This document shows positions 50,893 to 59,566 of a stretch of DNA of 64,000 bases, piece by piece. The notes beneath the pieces are model-generated. The model saw only the letters and a program-made list of their open reading frames with translations, did no database searches and was not told the DNA's origin. Each line of letters starts with the position of its first letter. The stretch's first letter is position 1. Source of the DNA: Pseudomonas sp. KBW05 (GTDB lineage: Bacteria; Pseudomonadota; Gammaproteobacteria; Pseudomonadales; Pseudomonadaceae); the NCBI RefSeq assembly GCF_003852405.1, contig NZ_QAJM01000016.1, forward strand, positions 285,124 through 349,123, read 5' to 3'. The translations under genes were made by a program, and so were the position numbers.

Positions 50893-50911
50893 ATTAATGA
50901 GAAACATTCTC
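50893..50911. promoter_or_regulatory. Probable Fur box before the ECF sigma gene
   Basis: attAATGAGAAACATTCTC matches the core of the Fur consensus GATAATGATAATCATTATC at 13 of the last 16 positions. It lies 52 bases before the sigma factor start, where iron-starvation sigma genes of the FecI type normally carry a Fur site. Confidence 0.7.
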
Positions 50912-50962
50912 ACTATACTCGTGCCCTCTCCCGGTTCTGCCCGAGCATAGGAACGTGCCGCC

Positions 50963-51460
50963 GTGCTGGAAAAACTCTTCAATCAACATGCATCCGCCCT
51001 GCATCGTTACCTGTTGCGGAAGAAATGCACCCCCAGCCTTGCCTCGGACCTGGTGCAGGACACGTTCCTGCGCATCGCCCAGCTGGAGAACATGGAACGC
51101 ATCCTGTGCGCGCCGTCGTACCTGTTTCGCGTCGCGCACAACCTCATGATCGACCACCATCGACGCTACGGTGAAAAGCGCTTCGACAGCGACGCAGCCG
51201 CCTATTTCGACACTCTGGTGGACGAAGCCAGCGGCCCGGAAGAGCAAGCGCTCGACGCCCTGGCCCTGGAGCAGTTGGAAAGCCTGCTGGAACGCATGCC
51301 AGAGCGCACCCGCGATATTTTCATGCTGTGCCGGGTGGAAGGCATGACGCACAAAGAGACCGCCCGCTATTTACGGATATCCACAAGCTCTGTACAAAAA
51401 CACATGGCGATGGCGCTGGCCAAGATTGGCAAGGCGCTTGATCCAGACCAAGAGGGCTAG
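50963..51460 (+). CDS. ECF sigma factor, FecI-type
   Basis: A 165-residue extracytoplasmic-function sigma factor. Region 2 covers about residues 8-72 (LHRYLLRKKCTPSLASDLVQDTFLRIAQ, then SYLFRVAHNLMIDHHRR, the -10 recognition helix). Region 4 covers about 105-158 (LERMPERTRDIFMLCRVEGMTHKETARYL and STSSVQKHMAMAL, the -35 helix-turn-helix). The start is GTG 50963 with AGGA upstream. A FecR-type anti-sigma gene follows at 43 bases and a receptor with a signalling domain after that: a complete cell-surface-signalling set. A Fur-like box lies upstream, so low iron would be one of two required signals, the other coming from the receptor. Confidence 0.95.
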   Translation: MLEKLFNQHASALHRYLLRKKCTPSLASDLVQDTFLRIAQLENMERILCAPSYLFRVAHNLMIDHHRRYGEKRFDSDAAAYFDTLVDEASGPEEQALDALALEQLESLLERMPERTRDIFMLCRVEGMTHKETARYLRISTSSVQKHMAMALAKIGKALDPDQEG

Positions 51461-51503
51461 ACCTTGGGTATCTTGAAAAGCAAGAAGGTAAACAGTCAGA
51501 ACC

Positions 51504-52478
51504 GTGAATGCTCCCCCACAAACGACCGACCCGTTGGAGCGCAAAGCTGCCGATTGGGTGATGCGTCATCGACAAGGCCAGCTGTCGGCGCGTGAGCTAG
51601 AAGCTTTTCAGCGTTGGCAGGAAGCCGACCCCAGGCATGCCGCCGCCGCCGGCCGGGCTGACCGTGCCTGGCGCGCCACCGCCTCGCTCAAACGCCACCC
51701 CGGCTATGTAAAACCGCAACGCCCGCCGCGCACGCTCTGGACCCGCAATACCTGCGCCAGCGCCATCGGTGCTGCCGCGCTGGGCTGCTGGATGCTGCTC
51801 GCGCCGCCCTTCTGGCTGCAAGCGCTGAACAGCGACTATCACACCGGCTTTGGCGAAGTTCGCCACATTACCCTGGCAGATGGCAGCCAGGTTGAACTGG
51901 GCAGCCACAGCATCCTGAACGTCGCCTATGACGAGCAAACTCGCCTGGTCAACCTGAGCCAGGGCGAAGCGGTGTTCACCCCATCGCCGATCAATGATCA
52001 GGAGCGCCGCCCTTTTACCGTGCGCGCGCCCGGCGCCGACATCACTGCACGCGGCACACGCTATCTGGTCGGTGTCGGTCAGGATCGCGAAGGCTGGGTC
52101 GGGGTTTTGCAGCACAAGGTCGAGGTCAACCTGACGCCCGCCCAGCGCGATGATGCGGCCGGCTCCGCCCTGCTGGAGCAAGGCAACAGCCTGCGCTTCA
52201 GCCCCAAGACCGGCTTGGTGCCGCTCACCACGCGCCCGGATGAACTGGCCAGTTGGCAGGAAGGTCGCCTGGTGTTCCAACGCGAACCGCTGGGCGAAGC
52301 GGTGGCGCGCATCAATCGCTACCGACCGGGGCTGGTCGTGGTCAAAGGCGACACATTGAGTGCGGTGCGCATCAGCGCGGTGATGCGTCTGGACAATCTC
52401 GACGACGCCCTCAAACACCTCGCACAGCAAGCCCACGGGCGCATTCTCGACCTGCCTGGACTCACGCTGATCTACTGA
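51504..52478 (+). CDS. FecR-type anti-sigma/sigma regulator
   Basis: Inner-membrane sensor that passes the receptor's signal to the sigma factor. The 324-residue protein has an N-terminal cytoplasmic DUF4880 domain (about 10-55, ADWVMRHRQGQLSARELEAF), one transmembrane helix (about 84-106), the periplasmic FecR domain (about 115-220, with ITLADGSQVELGSHSILNV and FTVRAPGADITARGTRYLVG) and a C-terminal STN-like segment (about 265-324, SAVMRLDNLDDALKHLAQQ). The start GTG 51504 lacks a strong ribosome site. It is followed by a hairpin with T run before the receptor gene, so receptor expression is separately controlled. Confidence 0.94.
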   Translation: MNAPPQTTDPLERKAADWVMRHRQGQLSARELEAFQRWQEADPRHAAAAGRADRAWRATASLKRHPGYVKPQRPPRTLWTRNTCASAIGAAALGCWMLLAPPFWLQALNSDYHTGFGEVRHITLADGSQVELGSHSILNVAYDEQTRLVNLSQGEAVFTPSPINDQERRPFTVRAPGADITARGTRYLVGVGQDREGWVGVLQHKVEVNLTPAQRDDAAGSALLEQGNSLRFSPKTGLVPLTTRPDELASWQEGRLVFQREPLGEAVARINRYRPGLVVVKGDTLSAVRISAVMRLDNLDDALKHLAQQAHGRILDLPGLTLIY

Positions 52479-52502
52479 AAGGCCCCGCCTGCGGGCCTTT
52501 TA
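52478..52502 (+). terminator. Terminator after the FecR-type gene
   Basis: Stem aaaggccc / gggccttt with a short loop and a following tttt, directly at the stop codon. It splits the sigma/anti-sigma unit from the receptor unit, as expected if the latter has its own sigma-dependent promoter. Confidence 0.8.
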
Positions 52503-52529
52503 ACATCATGAATATATAAAACAAGATAC

Positions 52530-52548
52530 ATAGATCATAACGATCTAT
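52530..52548. promoter_or_regulatory. Inverted repeat in the receptor promoter region
   Basis: ATAGATC-ATAAC-GATCTAT is a perfect seven-base inverted repeat in the AT-rich gap before the receptor gene. It could be an operator or part of the promoter recognised with the neighbouring ECF sigma factor; neither can be shown from the sequence alone. Confidence 0.5.
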
Positions 52549-52622
52549 CGCGTTTTTGCTGCTGCTGCGTTTCTACTACATGTGAATAACTCTTATTTGC
52601 TTTAGTGAGGCCGGTTTTGCAG

Positions 52623-55600
52623 ATGCAACAGAACAACAAGAAGCGCAAGGCAGCAAATCGCACGCGACTGAGCCTGGGCATCCAGCTCGCCGTGTTCGCG
52701 CTGGCCGCCGACGCCGCCGCCATCAACCCGGTGCAAACCCGCCCGGTCAGCAGCGCTGCACAGGTGCAACCCCAAGGTGCTTACCACGACTTCGACGTAC
52801 CCGCCCTGTCGCTGGACGAAGGCCTGGTGCTGCTGGCGCGCCAGGCGGGTGTCGAGGTCTACCTGGGCAGCAATGACCTCACCGGCACCTACGGCAACCC
52901 GGTCAAGGGCCGCCTGTCCCTGGAAGCTGCGCTGCAACAACTGCTCGCCAACCAGGCGCTGACCTACAGCCTGGGCAGCCAGCCCGAGCGGCCGATCATC
53001 CAGGTGCAACCCGCGCCGGGCATGAGCGGCATCCAGCAAGGCGACCTGCACCCGATCTACGTGCATGGCCTGGACGGCAAAGAGTCGCGCGACGAAAAGG
53101 GCTACAACGACATCTACGATCTGGACGTGTCCTCCGTGTATTCCGGCAAGGAACAGATCGAACGCTACAAAGGCGCCGCCCCCGCCGACATGTTCAAGGG
53201 CATGCTCAACGTCTACAGCGGTGACGGCCGCAACAGCGGCGCGCTCGACCCCAACGTGCGCGGCATCCAGGGCCCCGGCCGGGTGCCGCTGACCATCGAC
53301 GGCACCGAACAGGCGCTGACGGTGTATCGCGGCTACATGGGCGCCAACAACCGTAACTACATCGACCCCAACCTGATCGGCAGCATCAAGGTGCTCAAGG
53401 GACCGAACCTGGAGCGCAACGTCTATAGCGGCGTGGGCGGCGCGGTGGTCGCCAACACCTTGAACGTGGATGACATCCTCAAGGAAGGCCAGGAGTTCGG
53501 CGGCGAGCTGAAGATGGAAGGCAGTAACAACTCGGTGTCGCCCAAGTTGCCGCACTTGATGACCGGCCAAAGCCCGCCCGCCGACTATCAATACATCCCC
53601 ATTAATTCCTACTACGACCCGTCGCTGTACAAGCACCCGCGCACCAGCCGCGACAACAGCCTGATCACCGGCGGCGACTCGGCCTACCGCCTGGCCCTCG
53701 GCACCCGCCAGGAAAAATTCGAACTGCTCGCCGCCTACGCCTACCGCGAAAAGGGCAACCACTACGCGGGCAAGAACAAGAGCGGGTTCTACGCCACCGG
53801 CAAACAGGTCAATGGCCAGTTCGACTACATCCCCAACCTGGCCAACATCTATAAACCGGGGGATGAAGTGCCCAATACCTCTAGCAAGATGGAGTCGTGG
53901 CTAGCCAAGGCCAAGCTGAAGATCGACGACGACCAATCCCTGGAGTTCGGCTACCGCGACACGGATTCGCTGTACGGCGAAATCCTGCCGTCACGCATTT
54001 CGTTCTTCCGCCCCGGCGACCAGTACGACGCCGCATCCAGCGGCGTACCGCAGTGGCCGCTAAGTCATGTGCAGAGCAAAGCCTACAACCTGGAATACAA
54101 CCTCAAGCCCGAAGGCAACCCGTGGGTGGATTTCTATTCCAACCTCTGGGCCACCAATACCCAAAGCGACACCTATACCAGTGGCGGTGTGCCCAACTCC
54201 ACCAGCATGGCCAACCCGGCATTCAGAAATACAGCCGTGGCCAACGCGCAACATGACCGGGCCGGCGTGACCCTCAGCAACAAGTTCAAGATGCTGGATA
54301 GCCTGGACCTCACGTTAGGCGCCAGTTACCAGCACGAAAAGTTAAGCTCGAAGGACGACTACTACGACCCCATTATCTTCGACCTCTTGCGCATGAACCC
54401 GCGCGCTGGGCGCCGGGACGAAAGGGAGTACAACTTCAACTTCGATTGGCGGCCGGTCAGTTTTGTCAAATTCACAGCAGGCGCGCGCTACTCGTCTTAC
54501 TGGGCGTTCGATGATTATTTGAAAGAAACTCAAGACGCGTCAGGTGTGACCACCAAAGTGTATGAAACTGGAAAAAGGGTGAATTACACCACGCGCAAAA
54601 TATTGACCGACAGCGAGGTAGAGGCAGCGATTGCGCAAAAAATTGCTGAACAACAACCCACCTGGGACGCCTGGGGATTTACCGAGGAAGATAAGGCGGT
54701 TGTCACAGAAGAGATCAGACGCACAACCACCAGCATTCAGGACACTTACAACACGGCCGACTGGGCAAGCGATGATAAAGGTCGTTTCTCACGCGCCACT
54801 GACCCCTGCATCATTGCGGCGAACTCGGGGGAAAATGTAATTGCTTGTACCACCTCGACAAACCAGCCCGTTGTAAAAGACGTCAAAGCCAAGCACCAGA
54901 AAGACAGCGGCTGGGCGCCCAGTGCATCGGCCACGTTTTATACCTCGGAAAATGGCCGATTCTATTTGCGCTACAGCGAAGCCATCCGTTATCCAAGCAT
55001 GTTTGAAAGCACCCTCGGCTTTTCAGCATCCATAAATCCCTGGGGCCTTGAGCCGGAGCATGCCTATAACTATGAAGCTGCCTACATTCACAACCTCGCG
55101 GGCTGGGGTGGAAGTGAGCGTGCGGATATCAAGCTGACCTATTACAACAACACCACCAAAAATGTGATTGAACGTGACCCCTCGCTATTCTTCAGCAACC
55201 TGGAGAAGCAGACGACCTCCGGTGTGGAACTCCAGGGACGCTACGACAACGGCGGATTCTTCACCGACCTGAGCATTGCCCATGTACTGAAAAACAGAGT
55301 CTGTGATGAAAATTCCGCCGTCAGCATCAGCGCCAACGGCAGTACCCCAAACTGTGTGGACGATGGTTTTGTCGGGGGTTACCTAGTGAGCATGTCCCAG
55401 CCGGAATGGTCAGCCAATCTGGGCTTGGGCGCGCGGTTCTTCAATCGCAAGCTCGAAGTCGGCGGACGCGCCATTTATTACCGCCAACACGAGAGCAAGT
55501 TTGAAAGTAACTACGCCGACAGTGCCATGGTCAGTTACTACATCAACACCCCGATGTCGTGGGACAAGATAGTGACCTATGACGCCTACGTGAACTACAA

Positions 55601-55733
55601 GTTGACCGACGATGCATCTATCGAACTGACCGGCACCAACTTGAGCAACCTTTATTACGTCGACCCACTGACACGTTCGGCGGTGCCGGCCCCGGGTCGC
55701 ACGTTAAAACTTGCATTCACAACAAACTTTTAG
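52623..55733 (+). CDS. TonB-dependent receptor with N-terminal signalling domain (hemophore/haem receptor)
   Basis: A 1036-residue outer-membrane receptor. After a long Sec signal peptide (core GIQLAVFALAADAAA) comes an STN signalling domain (about 52-110: FDVPALSLDEGLVLLARQAG, then GRLSLEAALQQLLANQ), which contacts FecR-type regulators. The plug follows (about 155-290, with DPNVRGIQGPGRVPLTIDG and IKVLKGP) and then a 22-strand barrel ending in LKLAFTTNF. Large loops contain a charged insert near 645-770 (EVEAAIAQKIAEQQPTWDAW). ATG 52623 is used; GTG 52605 is in frame. Followed by two hemophilin-like genes and a Slam gene, its ligand is most likely a haem-loaded hemophore. From about 54480 on the DNA is visibly more A+T-rich than the first half. 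Confidence 0.94.
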   Translation: MQQNNKKRKAANRTRLSLGIQLAVFALAADAAAINPVQTRPVSSAAQVQPQGAYHDFDVPALSLDEGLVLLARQAGVEVYLGSNDLTGTYGNPVKGRLSLEAALQQLLANQALTYSLGSQPERPIIQVQPAPGMSGIQQGDLHPIYVHGLDGKESRDEKGYNDIYDLDVSSVYSGKEQIERYKGAAPADMFKGMLNVYSGDGRNSGALDPNVRGIQGPGRVPLTIDGTEQALTVYRGYMGANNRNYIDPNLIGSIKVLKGPNLERNVYSGVGGAVVANTLNVDDILKEGQEFGGELKMEGSNNSVSPKLPHLMTGQSPPADYQYIPINSYYDPSLYKHPRTSRDNSLITGGDSAYRLALGTRQEKFELLAAYAYREKGNHYAGKNKSGFYATGKQVNGQFDYIPNLANIYKPGDEVPNTSSKMESWLAKAKLKIDDDQSLEFGYRDTDSLYGEILPSRISFFRPGDQYDAASSGVPQWPLSHVQSKAYNLEYNLKPEGNPWVDFYSNLWATNTQSDTYTSGGVPNSTSMANPAFRNTAVANAQHDRAGVTLSNKFKMLDSLDLTLGASYQHEKLSSKDDYYDPIIFDLLRMNPRAGRRDEREYNFNFDWRPVSFVKFTAGARYSSYWAFDDYLKETQDASGVTTKVYETGKRVNYTTRKILTDSEVEAAIAQKIAEQQPTWDAWGFTEEDKAVVTEEIRRTTTSIQDTYNTADWASDDKGRFSRATDPCIIAANSGENVIACTTSTNQPVVKDVKAKHQKDSGWAPSASATFYTSENGRFYLRYSEAIRYPSMFESTLGFSASINPWGLEPEHAYNYEAAYIHNLAGWGGSERADIKLTYYNNTTKNVIERDPSLFFSNLEKQTTSGVELQGRYDNGGFFTDLSIAHVLKNRVCDENSAVSISANGSTPNCVDDGFVGGYLVSMSQPEWSANLGLGARFFNRKLEVGGRAIYYRQHESKFESNYADSAMVSYYINTPMSWDKIVTYDAYVNYKLTDDASIELTGTNLSNLYYVDPLTRSAVPAPGRTLKLAFTTNF

Positions 55734-55807
55734 CCATCAGTCAATGCCGAGCTGTTGCACCGCTCGCGAAAACGGAAGTTTATGAACTTCATCAGTCAGG
55801 GAATGAG

Positions 55808-56557
55808 ATGAAACTTTTAACTGTGGCAACTCTGTCAATTGGATTGCTTGGACTCAGTGACATGATTCGGGCGGAAAACGCTTCCGGCCAAAGCTATTAC
55901 GGCACCATCAACGTCGGTTACACGCATGCCTATGGGCCACCTGGATATCCCAGCGTGCCGGGCCAACCCAGCATTGTATTGGTGAGCCCTTTCAATACGA
56001 CGCCAATCGCCTTCAACGCCCTGAAGAACATGATTCTGCCCGACACAAATGGGGTCACAAGCTTGTCATCACTGCCACCCCCTGCAATGGGCAGCTTTGA
56101 TTTCAAAACCATTGCAAGCCAGCAAGTGTACTTCGGTGAATGGTCGAACAGCGGCGCCGATAATGACCCCACCCGAGTCGTGTATTACAGCGGTGAAACT
56201 ACCGGCCGAGTGTTGCCAAGCACCAACGTCACCTACGCCGTTCAAGGTATTAACAACTACTCAGGTACCAACCTGCTCACAGGTGAACTGACTGCAAGTT
56301 TCGGTACCGCGGCGCCTGCGCTGACGGGAACACTGAGTAACAACAGTCTTAAAATACAGTTATCTGCCCCTATTTCCACGGCAGATACCAGCTTCAGCGG
56401 CTATGCCATCGTTCGTAACGCCAGCACCCAATCACTGCTCTCATCGGGGACGACGCAAGGCAGCTTCTTCGGTGCCGGCACCACCGCATCTATCGCCGGC
56501 ATCACTAAGTTTACCAATCGAAATTACGACACCGCGTTTGGTGGAGTCGTTAAGTAA
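55808..56557 (+). CDS. Hemophilin-like secreted hemophore, copy 1
   Basis: A 249-residue protein with a Sec signal peptide (MKLLTVATLSIGLLGLSDMIRA) and no lipobox cysteine, so a soluble secreted protein. The mature part starts SGQSYYGTI. An N-terminal ligand domain extends to about 150 (FDFKTIASQQVYFGEWS, DPTRVVYYSGE), followed by a small beta-barrel like those of Slam substrates and TbpB: LLTGELTASFG, SFFGAGTTASIAGITKF and the end DTAFGGVVK. It has only one histidine (H40), unlike copy 2, so haem coordination may differ. An AGGGAATGAG site precedes the ATG. Placed after the receptor and before copy 2 and Slam. The hemophilin (HphA/HsmA-like) assignment rests on domain layout and context. Confidence 0.82.
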   Translation: MKLLTVATLSIGLLGLSDMIRAENASGQSYYGTINVGYTHAYGPPGYPSVPGQPSIVLVSPFNTTPIAFNALKNMILPDTNGVTSLSSLPPPAMGSFDFKTIASQQVYFGEWSNSGADNDPTRVVYYSGETTGRVLPSTNVTYAVQGINNYSGTNLLTGELTASFGTAAPALTGTLSNNSLKIQLSAPISTADTSFSGYAIVRNASTQSLLSSGTTQGSFFGAGTTASIAGITKFTNRNYDTAFGGVVK

Positions 56558-56685
56558 CCCGCAACGCTAACTTAATCCAACTTACAACTACGTTCTAACG
56601 TGTGAGGTGTTCCATGGGAGGCTAAAGAAAACTTGGCAGATGCTTGACGTGTTGACTTAATTAAAATCACTCAATGGATGATGAA

Positions 56686-57447
56686 ATGAAAACTTTCAAC
56701 TACACAGTATTGGCAGTGGCTCTTCTTGGTTTGGCTGGCGTTGCTCAAGCAGATACTTCTTCTGGCCAAAGCTATACCGGCACTATCGTCGTGGAAGGCT
56801 CCAGCGGCACGGGTTCTACCAATCACCCGGGCACTGCTGGCCAACCGTCCGTAGGCGTGCTGGCGTTTTACGGCGGTGCAAAAGTGGGCTTCAGCGGTCT
56901 CAAAGGCATGGTCGCCACTGACGCCAATGGCGTCACCACCATTACCCCGGCCATGATGCCAGCCTCCCACGCCGCGCTGGGTAACTTTGACTTCAAGCAA
57001 GTCGCCAGCCAGCAGGTCTACTACGGCGAGTGGTCGCAGAACGGCACCAACAACGACCCGACTCGCGTTGTGTACTACTCCGGTGACAACACCGGCCGTG
57101 TACTGCCAACGACCAGCGTGACCTACGCGGTACAGGGCATCAACAACTACTCCGGGGCTAACGTTCTTGCCGGTGACTTGACCGCCACCTTCGGCACTGC
57201 CGCGCCAACCTTGACCGGCTCTATTGCCAACAGCACCCTGCGAGTCGGCGTGAACGCCAACATCAGCACCAGCGATGCCAGCTTCGCGGGCAGCGCCACA
57301 GCGCGCAATGCCGCAACCAATGCGTTGCTGTCCACCGGTACGACCAATGGCAACTTCTACGGCGCAGGCTCTACCGCGTCGCTGGCCGGTATCACCAAGT
57401 TCACCAACCGCGACTACGACACCGCTTTCGGCGGCGTAGCCAAGTAA
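56686..57447 (+). CDS. Hemophilin-like secreted hemophore, copy 2
   Basis: A 253-residue paralogue of the upstream gene, with a Sec signal peptide (MKTFNYTVLAVALLGLAGVAQA) and no lipobox. It keeps SGQSYTGTI, DFKQVASQQVYYGEWS, NDPTRVVYYSGDNTGRVLP, YAVQGINNYSG, then the barrel signature GNFYGAGSTASLAGITKF and DTAFGGVAK. Two histidines, H47 in a Gly-rich loop and H95 before the core, are candidates for the two haem ligands known in hemophilins. ATG 56686 gives the cleaner signal peptide; ATG 56674 adds four residues. Codon usage here is GC-rich like the host, unlike copy 1. A very strong hairpin follows before the Slam gene, so this protein should be made in excess over its exporter. Confidence 0.85.
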   Translation: MKTFNYTVLAVALLGLAGVAQADTSSGQSYTGTIVVEGSSGTGSTNHPGTAGQPSVGVLAFYGGAKVGFSGLKGMVATDANGVTTITPAMMPASHAALGNFDFKQVASQQVYYGEWSQNGTNNDPTRVVYYSGDNTGRVLPTTSVTYAVQGINNYSGANVLAGDLTATFGTAAPTLTGSIANSTLRVGVNANISTSDASFAGSATARNAATNALLSTGTTNGNFYGAGSTASLAGITKFTNRDYDTAFGGVAK

Positions 57448-57475
57448 CAGCGGCTTGAACTGACGTAGCACCACC

Positions 57476-57508
57476 AAGCAAGTGCCTGGCCTCCAGGCAC
57501 TTGCTTTT
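57476..57508 (+). terminator. Attenuating terminator between hemophore 2 and Slam
   Basis: A perfect 14-base stem (aagcaagtgcctgg / ccaggcacttgctt) with a three-base loop and tttt. It lies 28 bases after the hemophore stop and 31 before the Slam start, so Slam is expressed by readthrough. Confidence 0.9.
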
Positions 57509-57539
57509 GGCGTTTTGAAGCGATCCCGAGAGCCCGGTA

Positions 57540-59039
57540 ATGCCCCAGCCCTACTGCAAGCGATCCCTCACGTTGCATGTGTTGCCCCTTTCCCTGCTGC
57601 TGTTCATGGCCCCGACGGTGTTCGCCGCCGACCAGGACACCAGCCTGCGTCTGAACCAGAGCATCGAGTACCGCGCCAACAAGCAAGAGCGCGAGTTGCT
57701 CAAGGATGAACTGCCGAGTGACGGTGCCGCGCCGTCGCTGACCATCGACGGCCAGACCTACACCGTCGGCAACAACCTCGACGAGTTGGGCCGCGCGGTG
57801 TACCTGAGCGTCGAGCGCCAGCAATGGCCAAACGCCCGCGACTACCTCAAGCGCTACACCGCCCTGCCCGGCCACGACCCGATGCTCACCGCCTACGCCA
57901 ACGGCGGCTTGGCCCGTGCCGATGGCGACCTGGACAGCGCCGAACGTTATTACCAGGACCTGCTGGCCATCCAGCCCGACTTCCTGCCCGGGCGCCTGGA
58001 ACTGGCGCGGGTGCAGTTCGAGAACCGCAAGGACCGCGACTCCAAGGCCGTGTTCGAAAAAATCAGCAGCAGCCTCAGCCCGTCGGACGCCCAGGCCATG
58101 GGGCTGGGCAAGACCGTCGACAGTTTTATCCAGGCCCTCGACCATCGCGAAGACTGGCAAGGCTCGTTCGCCATCGGCCCGACCTGGAGCGACAACCTCA
58201 ACCAGTCGTCCGAAGGCAGCGTGACTTACCGCTACCAGACCGCTGAAGAAACCTACGTGGTCAAGCAATCCCTGCCCAAGGCCGTGTCGGCCCACGGCCA
58301 GGATTACGAGGCCACGCTCAACAAACGCATCGCCATCAGCGGCCATCACGGGCTGTTCGTGCGCTCGCTGTTGTACGGCCAAGCGTACGAAAAAGAGAGC
58401 AAGTACAACGAATCCACCGTGATCAACAACGCCGGCTACAGCTACCACGATGCGCGCAACCAGTACGCCTTCGGGCCGTCGTACGAGTTCAACACCATTG
58501 GCGACAACGCCATGTACAGCGCCTGGGGCCTGCGCGGCGAGTGGATTCACACGCTGTCGGCCACACGCATGTTCAAGCTCGAAGGCGAGTACAAGGACAT
58601 GACGTACAAACACCAGATCAACAGCAACCTCGACGGCGGTATCAGCTCGGTCTACGCCACCCTGTGGCAAGTATTGCCCCGGCAGTGGACGCTGTTCGGC
58701 GGCGTCGACATTACCGAGCGCAACGCCCGCGACCGCGTCGCCGCGTACCTGCAAAAAGGTGTGCGTCTGGGCGTCGCCAAGGATTTCGACATCGGCGTGA
58801 GCGCCGTGCTGTTCGCCTCGTACCGCAAGCGTCAATACGATGCCTACAGCGCAATCGTCGATGGCCGACGCAATGAGGATGAGCAAGGCTACACCTTCAT
58901 CCTGCGTGCCCCACGGTTGGCGGTGTACGACGTGGTGCCCAGCCTTACGGTCAAATACAACAAGGTGCAGAGCAACATCGACTGGATTTATTCCTACGAC
59001 AAAAACAGCATCAGCCTAAAACTGGAGAAACAGTTCTAG
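57540..59039 (+). CDS. Slam-type outer-membrane exporter (surface lipoprotein assembly modifier)
   Basis: A 499-residue outer-membrane protein that in known systems moves hemophilins or surface lipoproteins across the outer membrane. A signal peptide (core LPLSLLLFMAPTVFA) is followed by a periplasmic TPR region (about 80-185: LGRAVYLSVERQQWPNARDYL, GLARADGDLDSAERYYQDLLA, LELARVQFENRKD) and then a DUF560 beta-barrel (about 205-499) with strands such as GSFAIGPTWSDNLNQSS and the terminal SISLKLEKQF ending in phenylalanine. This TPR-plus-DUF560 layout is the Slam signature. It is the last gene of the cluster, directly behind its two presumed substrates. Confidence 0.9.
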   Translation: MPQPYCKRSLTLHVLPLSLLLFMAPTVFAADQDTSLRLNQSIEYRANKQERELLKDELPSDGAAPSLTIDGQTYTVGNNLDELGRAVYLSVERQQWPNARDYLKRYTALPGHDPMLTAYANGGLARADGDLDSAERYYQDLLAIQPDFLPGRLELARVQFENRKDRDSKAVFEKISSSLSPSDAQAMGLGKTVDSFIQALDHREDWQGSFAIGPTWSDNLNQSSEGSVTYRYQTAEETYVVKQSLPKAVSAHGQDYEATLNKRIAISGHHGLFVRSLLYGQAYEKESKYNESTVINNAGYSYHDARNQYAFGPSYEFNTIGDNAMYSAWGLRGEWIHTLSATRMFKLEGEYKDMTYKHQINSNLDGGISSVYATLWQVLPRQWTLFGGVDITERNARDRVAAYLQKGVRLGVAKDFDIGVSAVLFASYRKRQYDAYSAIVDGRRNEDEQGYTFILRAPRLAVYDVVPSLTVKYNKVQSNIDWIYSYDKNSISLKLEKQF

Positions 59040-59158: not shown

Positions 59159-59566
59159 GTGGAAGAAATCATCGAACAATTGCGTGAAGCCAACGAACCG
59201 GTCCCGGTTCCTTTGGAGCTGCCTGACGAAGACCAACTGGTGGAAATCGAAGAACAACTGTTCATCGACATCCCGTTTGTCTTCCGTGAGTTCCTGCTGA
59301 CCGTCAGCGACGTGGTCTACGGCAGCCTGGAGCCGGTGACCGTCACCGACCCGCAGTCCCACACCTACCTGCCGGACGTGGCCGCCAACGCCTGGGATGC
59401 CGGCGTTGATCGCAGCATGATCCCGATCTGCCAGGACGGTGACGACTACTACTGCGTCGAAGAAGACGGCACCGTGGTGCTGTGGTCCGGCGAAGAAGAG
59501 CTGGTCACCGAAGAAACCTGGGAATCGGTGTGGCACTGGGCGCGGGACGTCTGGCTGGAAAGCTGA
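59159..59566 (+). CDS. SMI1/KNR4 (SUKH) family protein
   Basis: A 135-residue acidic protein of the SUKH superfamily: helical start EEIIEQLREANEPVPVPLELPDEDQLVEIEEQL, then the signature IPFVFREFLLTVSD, IPICQDGDDYYCVEEDGTVVLW and the end ESVWHWARDVWLES. Many SUKH proteins are immunity proteins against polymorphic toxins, but here no toxin gene is adjacent and the gene sits among core-like genes, so a housekeeping role is equally possible. GTG 59159 has AGAGGA eight bases upstream. Confidence 0.88.
   Translation: MEEIIEQLREANEPVPVPLELPDEDQLVEIEEQLFIDIPFVFREFLLTVSDVVYGSLEPVTVTDPQSHTYLPDVAANAWDAGVDRSMIPICQDGDDYYCVEEDGTVVLWSGEEELVTEETWESVWHWARDVWLES

What the first reader, a model, noticed from the sequence alone, without database searches (positions are those of the whole stretch)
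50893..59039. Complete hemophilin-Slam iron/haem scavenging module with its own sigma factor
In one direction and without foreign genes between them lie a Fur-like box, ECF sigma, FecR-type regulator, TonB receptor with an STN domain, two secreted hemophilin-like proteins and a Slam exporter. Established knowledge: Slam exports hemophilins in Haemophilus and Acinetobacter, and STN/FecR/FecI sets sense receptor occupancy. Inference: here the secreted hemophore itself, when loaded, would be the inducing signal through the receptor. Pseudomonas is known for HasA/HasR, which uses a type I secretion system; this would be a second, unrelated hemophore route.
Basis: partly seen in the sequence, partly recalled or inferred. 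Interest (0 to 1): 0.88.

Follow-up and report, generated by a model that had tools for sequence, protein, structure and literature searches.

The report
Pseudomonas haem-scavenging operon with sensor genes
This gene set probably lets a Pseudomonas secrete haem-grabbing proteins and sense haem at its surface; the same kind of cluster is known from Acinetobacter, but this one carries a different kind of control protein and an odd second haem-grabber that lacks the usual haem-holding residues.

Summary
In order on the + strand lie a Fur-like palindrome, ECF sigma, FecR, a TonB receptor with a signalling (STN) domain, two hemophilins (both HphA domains above Pfam cut-offs) and Slam.

The kind is not new: the Acinetobacter baumannii hemO (hph) cluster has the same five functions in the same order; receptor, hemophilin and Slam are 42-46% identical.

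Added here: (1) The module occurs in 14 of 399 sampled Pseudomonas genomes and in records of Novosphingobium, Pseudoalteromonas and Vibrio, although a 2023 paper calls the cluster unique to Acinetobacter. (2) Receptor STN and a nearby FecR go together: 22 of 22 loci with, 0 of 9 without; many are close kin. (3) The module sigmas do not share one origin (AU p = 0.002), while STN receptors group together. (4) The hemophilins are unequal. HplB keeps both axial histidines; HplA has Tyr at one place and a gap at the other. HplA stands in a low-GC tract next to a receptor segment only 50% identical to the nearest relative's, against 97% in the receptor's first 500 residues.

That loaded hemophore is the inducing signal remains inference.

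The parts
50898..50912 (+). Fur-box-like palindrome TGAGAA-N3-TTCTCA upstream of sigma
   Evidence: unique in window, 0 in 100 shuffles; block conserved in 14 modules, exact palindrome in 4 of 14; binding of Fur is inference
50963..51460 (+). ECF sigma factor, FecI type
   Evidence: Pfam and NCBIfam; trees
51504..52478 (+). FecR-type anti-sigma regulator
   Evidence: Pfam FecR, DUF4880
52531..52551 (+). conserved element TAGATCATAACGATCTATCGC between fecR and receptor; candidate site for the module's own sigma
   Evidence: exact in 8 of 14 modules, with substitutions in the rest; one match in the whole genome at up to 3 mismatches; role is inference
52623..55733 (+). TonB-dependent receptor with N-terminal signalling (STN) domain; open frame from 52605
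   Evidence: Pfam; best solved relative HasR, E 9e-32; 46% identical to the A. baumannii receptor
52779..53009 (+). STN signalling domain of the receptor (approximate limits)
   Evidence: alignments; Pfam STN E 0.025, below cut-off
54540..54932 (+). hypervariable receptor segment, aa 640-770 counted from the ATG at 52623
   Evidence: 50% identity to the nearest relative against 97% for aa 1-500
55808..56557 (+). hemophilin A (HplA): signal peptide, HphA_N, HphA_C barrel; neither axial His present
   Evidence: Pfam; alignments; Foldseek
56686..57447 (+). hemophilin B (HplB): signal peptide, HphA_N with both axial His, HphA_C barrel; open frame from 56674
   Evidence: Pfam; PDB sequence search; AlphaFold and Foldseek; alignments
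57540..59039 (+). Slam / type XI secretion outer-membrane exporter
   Evidence: SlipAM 7e-53, TPR_Slam 2e-21; 43% identical to the A. baumannii Slam

Best explanation
This is a hemO/hph-type haem-scavenging module with cell-surface signalling. Iron shortage lifts Fur from the sigma-fecR pair (inferred from the palindrome). HplB, and perhaps HplA, cross the inner membrane by Sec and the outer membrane through Slam (shown by others for the Acinetobacter and Xenorhabdus homologues, inferred here). HplB binds haem between two histidines and hands it to the receptor. Haem or loaded hemophore on the receptor makes its STN domain act on FecR, which frees the sigma to transcribe receptor, hemophilins and Slam from a promoter in the fecR-receptor gap, so the loop amplifies itself when haem is really found (inferred from FecIRA and HasISR). 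The window's form of the gap element occurs once in the genome, which suggests a local circuit. HplA is a lineage-specific second cargo whose haem site has changed.
For: Domain calls for every part; both hemophilins model with a C-terminal eight-strand barrel and match solved hemophilins best; HplB and 12 of 12 full-length Pseudomonas orthologues aligned keep both axial His; gene order conserved in 13 other Pseudomonas genomes, in the A. baumannii and Novosphingobium records, in Vibrio with 3.3 kb between receptor and hemophilin, and in Pseudoalteromonas with the sigma-FecR pair behind Slam; STN and FecR co-occur in 22 of 22 loci with STN and 0 of 9 without; Fur-like palindrome and conserved receptor-upstream element; the A. 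baumannii homologues: Slam-dependent secretion, haem binding, uptake through HphR (PMC8560813).
Against: No expression or binding data. The two HasR haem-ligand positions (recalled) are not conserved in this receptor, so transfer details must differ. The N-terminal, haem-binding halves are modelled with low confidence. The sigma-70 scan found no promoter in these gaps, and it does not cover ECF promoters. The upstream conservation is among near relatives. In S. maltophilia a haem-linked FecI homologue was not autoregulated, though its receptor there is truncated (PMC12772443).
Confidence: 0.72

Rival explanations
1. The receptor signals on haem or haemoproteins directly; the hemophilins only deliver haem and are not themselves part of the signal.
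For: The A. baumannii receptor is held to keep hemophore-independent haem piracy (PMC8560813). FecR/STN sets commonly sense the transported ligand (established knowledge).
Against: A hemophilin gene stands directly behind the receptor in the complete modules seen, except the Vibrio record with 3.3 kb between; in Serratia the loaded hemophore is the Has signal (recalled).
Confidence: 0.4
2. HplA is a decaying duplicate without function, not a new tool.
For: Intact in only 1 of the 14 Pseudomonas module genomes; a second (P. brenneri, L037/L058) holds a deleted remnant. Neither axial His is present.
Against: Full-length frame, intact signal peptide and barrel, HphA_N at 52.8 bits against a cut-off of 22; Tyr at the first ligand position in both the intact copy and the remnant.
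Confidence: 0.45
3. The module scavenges something other than haem.
For: Slam cargoes are diverse; PMC12282271 names a cobalt receptor protein among them (passage).
Against: HphA_N and HphA_C well above cut-off; HplB has both His ligands; NCBIfam's best receptor models are haem receptors, though below their cut-offs.
Confidence: 0.06

Closest known systems
Acinetobacter baumannii hemO (heme cluster 2; hphR-hphA-hsmA)
   Same: ECF sigma, anti-sigma, STN receptor, hemophilin, Slam in the same order (PMC10483418 table passage; record CP040048.1). Receptor 46%, HplB 42%, Slam 43% identical.
   Different: Acinetobacter continues with tonB, haem oxygenase and DUF454, absent here. Sigma and FecR are only 34% and 23% identical, and the sigma does not group with the Pseudomonas one. 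The window has a second, His-less hemophilin.
Has system (HasA-HasR-HasI-HasS)
   Same: Hemophore plus STN haem receptor plus ECF/anti-sigma; the receptor's best solved relative is HasR.
   Different: HasA has an unrelated fold and leaves by type I secretion (established knowledge). No HasA was found in this genome; the HasR haem-ligand His positions (recalled) are not conserved.
Xenorhabdus Hrp locus and other Slam/T11SS-1B hemophilin loci
   Same: TonB receptor, Slam and hemophilin homologue (PMC8406197 passages).
   Different: No sigma is mentioned there ('sigma' 0 times in the main text); in our set receptors without STN have no FecR hit nearby.
Stenotrophomonas maltophilia HemI-HemR-HemAD
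   Same: FecIRA-like haem regulation, Fur-repressed (PMC12772443 passages).
   Different: No hemophilin or Slam is mentioned there (0 occurrences of either word in the main text).

Membership tests
Hemophilin (HphA/Hpl) | HphA_N haem-binding domain | tested here: met
   Both above cut-off 22 bits: 52.8 (HplA), 79.9 (HplB)
Hemophilin (HphA/Hpl) | C-terminal eight-strand barrel (HphA_C) | tested here: met
   75.1 and 79.8 bits against 31; eight C-terminal strands in both models; Foldseek best hits are hemophilins
Hemophilin (HphA/Hpl) | Axial His ligands of HphA (H43, H106), in HplB | tested here: met
   H47 and H95 counted from the ATG at 56686, aligned to the HphA motifs; residue numbers assigned by motif
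Hemophilin (HphA/Hpl) | Axial His ligands of HphA (H43, H106), in HplA | tested here: not met
   Tyr at the first position, gap at the second. H. haemolyticus hemophilin uses a single His, so two are not absolute for the family
Hemophilin (HphA/Hpl) | Binds haem and is secreted | not testable with these tools
   needs purified protein and supernatants
Slam / type XI secretion exporter | SlipAM barrel plus N-terminal TPR domain | tested here: met
   7e-53 and 2e-21, both over cut-off
FecIRA-type cell-surface signalling set | ECF sigma plus FecR adjacent to a receptor with STN domain | tested here: met
   STN by alignment only, Pfam STN below cut-off
FecIRA-type cell-surface signalling set | Ligand-dependent activation of the receptor operon | not testable with these tools
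   needs reporter fusions
A. baumannii hemO-type cluster | sigma, anti-sigma, receptor, hemophilin, Slam in this order | tested here: met
A. baumannii hemO-type cluster | tonB and haem oxygenase in the same cluster | tested here: not met
   The gene after Slam is a SUKH protein; tblastn of the A. baumannii haem oxygenase and TonB gave no hit in the window at E 1e-3
Has system | HasA hemophore in the genome | tested here: not met
   0 matches in own genome; the same search finds HasA in 63 of 399 genomes of the genus

The most novel reading that the evidence does not exclude
HplA is a re-tooled hemophilin (for example Tyr-ligated haem, or another ligand) that came into the operon together with a new hemophore-docking segment of the receptor. 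In this module, then, receptor-hemophore specificity is exchanged as a cassette while export and signalling parts stay constant, and different lineages have coupled the same receptor-hemophilin-Slam core to different FecI/FecR pairs. That would make it a modular, privatised hemophore-sensing system, parallel to pyoverdine/FpvA types.
Probability: 0.3. Interest if true: 0.66.

Novelty: new variant of a known kind. Interest (0 to 1): 0.5.

Why it matters
It takes a haem system known mainly from an animal pathogen into Pseudomonas, including P. viridiflava and the other named strains, and contradicts the printed statement that the hemO cluster has no homologue outside Acinetobacter (PMC10483418). 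Besides Has it gives another hemophore encoded with a FecI-type sensor, with an unrelated hemophore fold and exporter, so one can test whether 'the loaded hemophore is the signal' is a general design. HplA gives a test of how far a hemophilin can move from His-ligated haem.

Tried and rejected
A new kind of system: rejected because of the A. baumannii cluster. A chance neighbourhood: rejected because the order is conserved. HasA and this module excluding each other: 0 of 14 module genomes have HasA against 63 of 399 overall, but 0 in 14 has a chance of 0.086, so not shown. A wider regulon of the receptor-upstream element: only one genome match at up to 3 mismatches. The genome with the hplA remnant (L037) sharing the window's receptor segment: not so, 48%. 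A known promoter or terminator consensus in the fecR-receptor gap: none called, although by eye a GC-rich hairpin with four T follows fecR in the window and L031 only. No claim about the haem pocket is drawn from the AlphaFold models (10-row alignments, low confidence in the N-terminal half). In one search one row (L067_2) was translated in a wrong frame and is not used. Rows dropped before the sigma trees: of 36 FecI-type paralogues in the own genome, 29 were fetched as loci, 25 were placed by my script, 21 remained after four long rows were left out; the long module row L067 and several near-copies of the Pseudomonas sigma were left out too. The receptor tree and the loop comparison leave out L034 (broken frame); the receptor tree also lacks L068, L070, L075 and L122-L126. 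Loci L120 and L121 were fetched to see the neighbours of two other sigmas; only an ORF list of L120 was made and nothing is claimed from it.

Searches for prior description: hemophilin+Slam+Pseudomonas (7 papers); two or more of hemophilin, sigma factor, FecR, Slam (340 papers, 20 listed); Slam+hemophore+TonB-dependent receptor from 2021 (8); four or more of hemophore, HasR, HasI, anti-sigma, Pseudomonas (32, 12 listed); four or more of Acinetobacter, hemO, sigma factor, heme, FecR (138, 20 listed); hemophilin or HphA from 2022 (206, 20 listed); hemophore+Slam+Pseudomonas fluorescens (1); HphR+heme (10); hemophilin+sigma factor (1, PMC10483418); two or more of haemophore, cell-surface signalling, Slam (13, 8 listed). 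None of the listed titles and abstract starts, or of the passages read from five papers (PMC8406197, PMC8560813, PMC10483418, PMC12282271, PMC12772443), describes a Pseudomonas hemophilin-Slam operon with its own sigma. The library lacks most subscription papers; the 2024 J Bacteriol hemophilin paper (10.1128/jb.00444-23) was not held and was not read.
Full report
Check of the observation. The ORF list and Pfam/NCBIfam scans confirm every named part at or near the stated coordinates: ECF sigma 50963-51460, FecR 51504-52478, receptor 52605/52623-55733, hemophilin A 55808-56557, hemophilin B 56674/56686-57447, Slam 57540-59039, all on +. The next gene is a SUKH protein (59159-59566), not a haem gene. 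The palindrome TGAGAA-N3-TTCTCA at 50898-50912 is the only such site in the window and absent from 100 shuffles. Both hemophilins start with a signal-peptide-like stretch and neither has a lipobox cysteine there (read from the sequence). Both exceed the cut-off of NCBIfam's Slam-dependent cargo model.

Structure. HplB modelled at mean pLDDT 69 and HplA at 65 with alignments of 10 rows; both show eight C-terminal strands, well predicted, and a poorly predicted N-terminal half. Foldseek's eight best PDB chains for each are hemophilins, led by Stenotrophomonas holo-HphA for HplB (E 1.2e-14) and Vibrio holo-HphA for HplA (E 3.5e-13).

Haem ligands. In A. baumannii HphA, haem iron is held by H43 and H106 (PMC8560813 passages). 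HplB aligns His at both places (NHP and PASH), and so do the 12 full-length HplB orthologues from Pseudomonas modules that I aligned (the L042 copy, which lacks the N-terminal domain, is not counted). HplA has Tyr at the first place (GYP) and a deletion at the second; a decayed hplA copy in L037/L058 (Pseudomonas brenneri) also has Tyr there (EYP). One orphan hemophilin outside a module, L044 (P. parafulva), also lacks both His, and one of the two in L067 lacks the second. Tyr ligation is a possibility, not a result.

Distribution. HphA_C was found in 21 of 399 Pseudomonas genomes, 19 above cut-off. I examined regions from 20 of these 21 (own included; G315 not fetched; some second hits not fetched). 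The full order sigma-FecR-STN receptor-hemophilin-Slam is present in 14 (own plus L031-L043), of which L042 has a hemophilin lacking its N-terminal domain and L034 a receptor with a broken frame. Nine of the 14 sit between the uvrD/tim44 and SUKH/kefB genes. Of 13 other genomes with the SUKH gene I fetched 9, and in all 9 (L078-L086) tim44 and SUKH are side by side, so the module was gained or lost there as a block. Outside the genus, 7 of 292 other genomes sampled from the order and 3 of 368 from the class have a match. Of those 10 loci, 4 hold an STN receptor, FecR, hemophilin and Slam (L067, L071, L072, L073; in L072 the sigma-FecR pair lies downstream of Slam; L067's sigma was found only by Pfam), 2 have receptors without STN and no FecR hit (L068, L075), and 4 are incomplete or negative (L069 Slam hit only, L070 and L074 cut by contig ends, L076 no hit). 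L070 shows a sigma but no FecR in its 10.5 kb, and its receptor's N-terminus is missing. The named scan gave 16 loci, 15 with sigma, FecR, receptor, hemophilin and Slam (L065 with the truncated hemophilin; several are the same genomes as above), among them P. viridiflava, P. cedrina, P. proteolytica, P. gessardii, P. brenneri and P. putida NBRC 14671. A receptor search of the plasmid collection gave 57 records. I opened 5: A. baumannii, Novosphingobium, Pseudoalteromonas and Vibrio records carry sigma, FecR, STN receptor, hemophilin and Slam (in Vibrio 3.3 kb lie between receptor and hemophilin), while an E. coli plasmid carries Slam and a receptor without STN or FecR.

STN and FecR go together. 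Over the scorable loci, receptors with an STN domain have a FecR within the fetched stretch in 22 of 22 (window, L031-L043, L067, L071-L073, L122-L125) and those without STN in 0 of 9 (L046-L050, L068, L075, L077, L126). Fourteen of the 22 are one Pseudomonas lineage, so these are not independent cases. The own genome has one of each kind: the window module and a second Slam-receptor-cargo locus without STN (L077). In the receptor tree of 23 rows the STN class is one side of a branch (100/100), although the program warned that long branches meet there.

The sigma factors are not one lineage. With 21 FecI-type paralogues of the own genome as background, the module sigmas fall apart: Pseudomonas with L072 (100/98); L070/L071/L073 with Pseudoalteromonas and Vibrio (100/97), next to another own-genome sigma (98/89); Acinetobacter apart, on weak support; Novosphingobium unsure. 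Holding them together is rejected (AU p 0.002 for 12 and for 11 rows; 0.005 in the 10-row set). The group is defined by gene context, but these tests were run after a first tree had suggested the split. So homologous receptor-hemophilin-Slam cores are coupled to different FecI-type sigmas, by separate recruitment or by replacement. The FecR genes were not put in a tree.

Control regions. Upstream of sigma a Fur-like block is conserved in 14 of 14 (exact palindrome in 4). Between fecR and receptor the region around TAGATCATAACGATCTATCGC is conserved (exact in 8 of 14, substituted in the rest), and the window's sequence has one match in the genome at up to 3 mismatches. This fits the Fec layout, with sigma and anti-sigma under Fur and the receptor operon under the sigma; the assignment is inference. 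The sigma-70 scan found nothing in these gaps.

A divergent tract. Against its nearest relative (L051/L031, Pseudomonas sp. CBZ-4) the window is 92-99% identical in 250-base steps through sigma, FecR and the first part of the receptor up to about 54150, and 93-99% from 57400 on. In between, receptor steps fall to 0.60-0.85, hplA is missing in the relative, and one step inside hplB falls to 0.74. At protein level aa 640-770 of the receptor are 50% identical while aa 1-500 are 97%, the largest such gap among the 78 pairs of 13 Pseudomonas receptors. Third-position GC drops to 0.67 in the receptor's C half and 0.59 in hplA, against 0.72-0.86 in the other parts. The window genome is also the only one of the 14 with an intact hplA. 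Co-arrival of hplA and a new receptor segment is the simplest reading, but it rests on one genome; against it, this segment is variable in genomes without hplA too (L042/L043: 51% against 87%), and the remnant-bearing L037 does not share the window's version (48%).

Comparison with the known. PMC10483418 (passages) lists the A. baumannii hemO cluster as ECF sigma, anti-sigma, hphR, hphA, hsmA, TonB-related, haem oxygenase, and states that it has no homologue in other genera; an A. baumannii record shows the same order. PMC8560813 (passages and discussion part 2) reports Slam-dependent secretion, haem binding and use through HphR. PMC8406197 (passages) reports a Xenorhabdus homologue as Slam cargo. 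The T11SS cargo survey PMC12282271 does not mention Pseudomonas, sigma or FecR in its main text (0 occurrences each). The window module is a member of this kind with changed parts. The receptor's nearest solved structures are HasR, so 'unrelated to Has' applies to hemophore and exporter only. The haem-ligand histidines of HasR (recalled: one in the plug, one in an outer loop) have no counterpart in the aligned segments.

How it most likely works, and what is shown. Shown here: parts, order, conservation, STN-FecR co-occurrence, ligand residues, sigma lineages. Shown for homologues by others: secretion by Slam, haem binding, uptake through the receptor. Inferred: Fur control, sigma control of the receptor operon, and loaded hemophore as signal. 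The own genome has two haem oxygenases but no HemS match (the control rang in E. coli) and no HasA match (with the positive findings).

Noticed in passing
window 54150-56650: Low-GC tract (receptor C half plus hplA) strongly diverged from the nearest relative while most of the flanks are 92-99% identical (one later step inside hplB is 74%); looks like an allele import by recombination.
   Followed up: partly
L077 (own genome C65:272000-288000): Second Slam locus in the same genome: receptor without STN, a 278-aa cargo with only a weak TbpB_B_D match (E 3e-4, below cut-off), no FecR hit; cargo ligand unknown.
   Followed up: partly
L042 / L065 (record titled Pantoea sp. Ap-967; the matching genome G134 is grouped with the window's genus): Hemophilin lacking the N-terminal haem domain but keeping the barrel; the record title looks mislabelled.
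   Followed up: no
L034, receptor around residue 926: Reading frame of the receptor broken near its C-terminus.
   Followed up: no
L044 / L064 (P. parafulva): Orphan hemophilin without both axial His beside Slam, no receptor hit nearby; by eye a transposase-like ORF (6149-6628 of L044) close by.
   Followed up: no
L045, 4300-8337: Three hemophilin-like cargo genes in a row behind a Slam, with no receptor or sigma hit in the 17 kb.
   Followed up: no
L124 (Pseudoalteromonas sp. KG3 plasmid, cheese rind): The whole module with haem oxygenase, tonB and exbD lies on a 184-kb plasmid beside transposase genes.
   Followed up: partly
L071:10400-11743 and L072:5803-7143: A TPR-repeat protein of 446-447 aa stands directly downstream of Slam in two other families of the order.
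   Followed up: no
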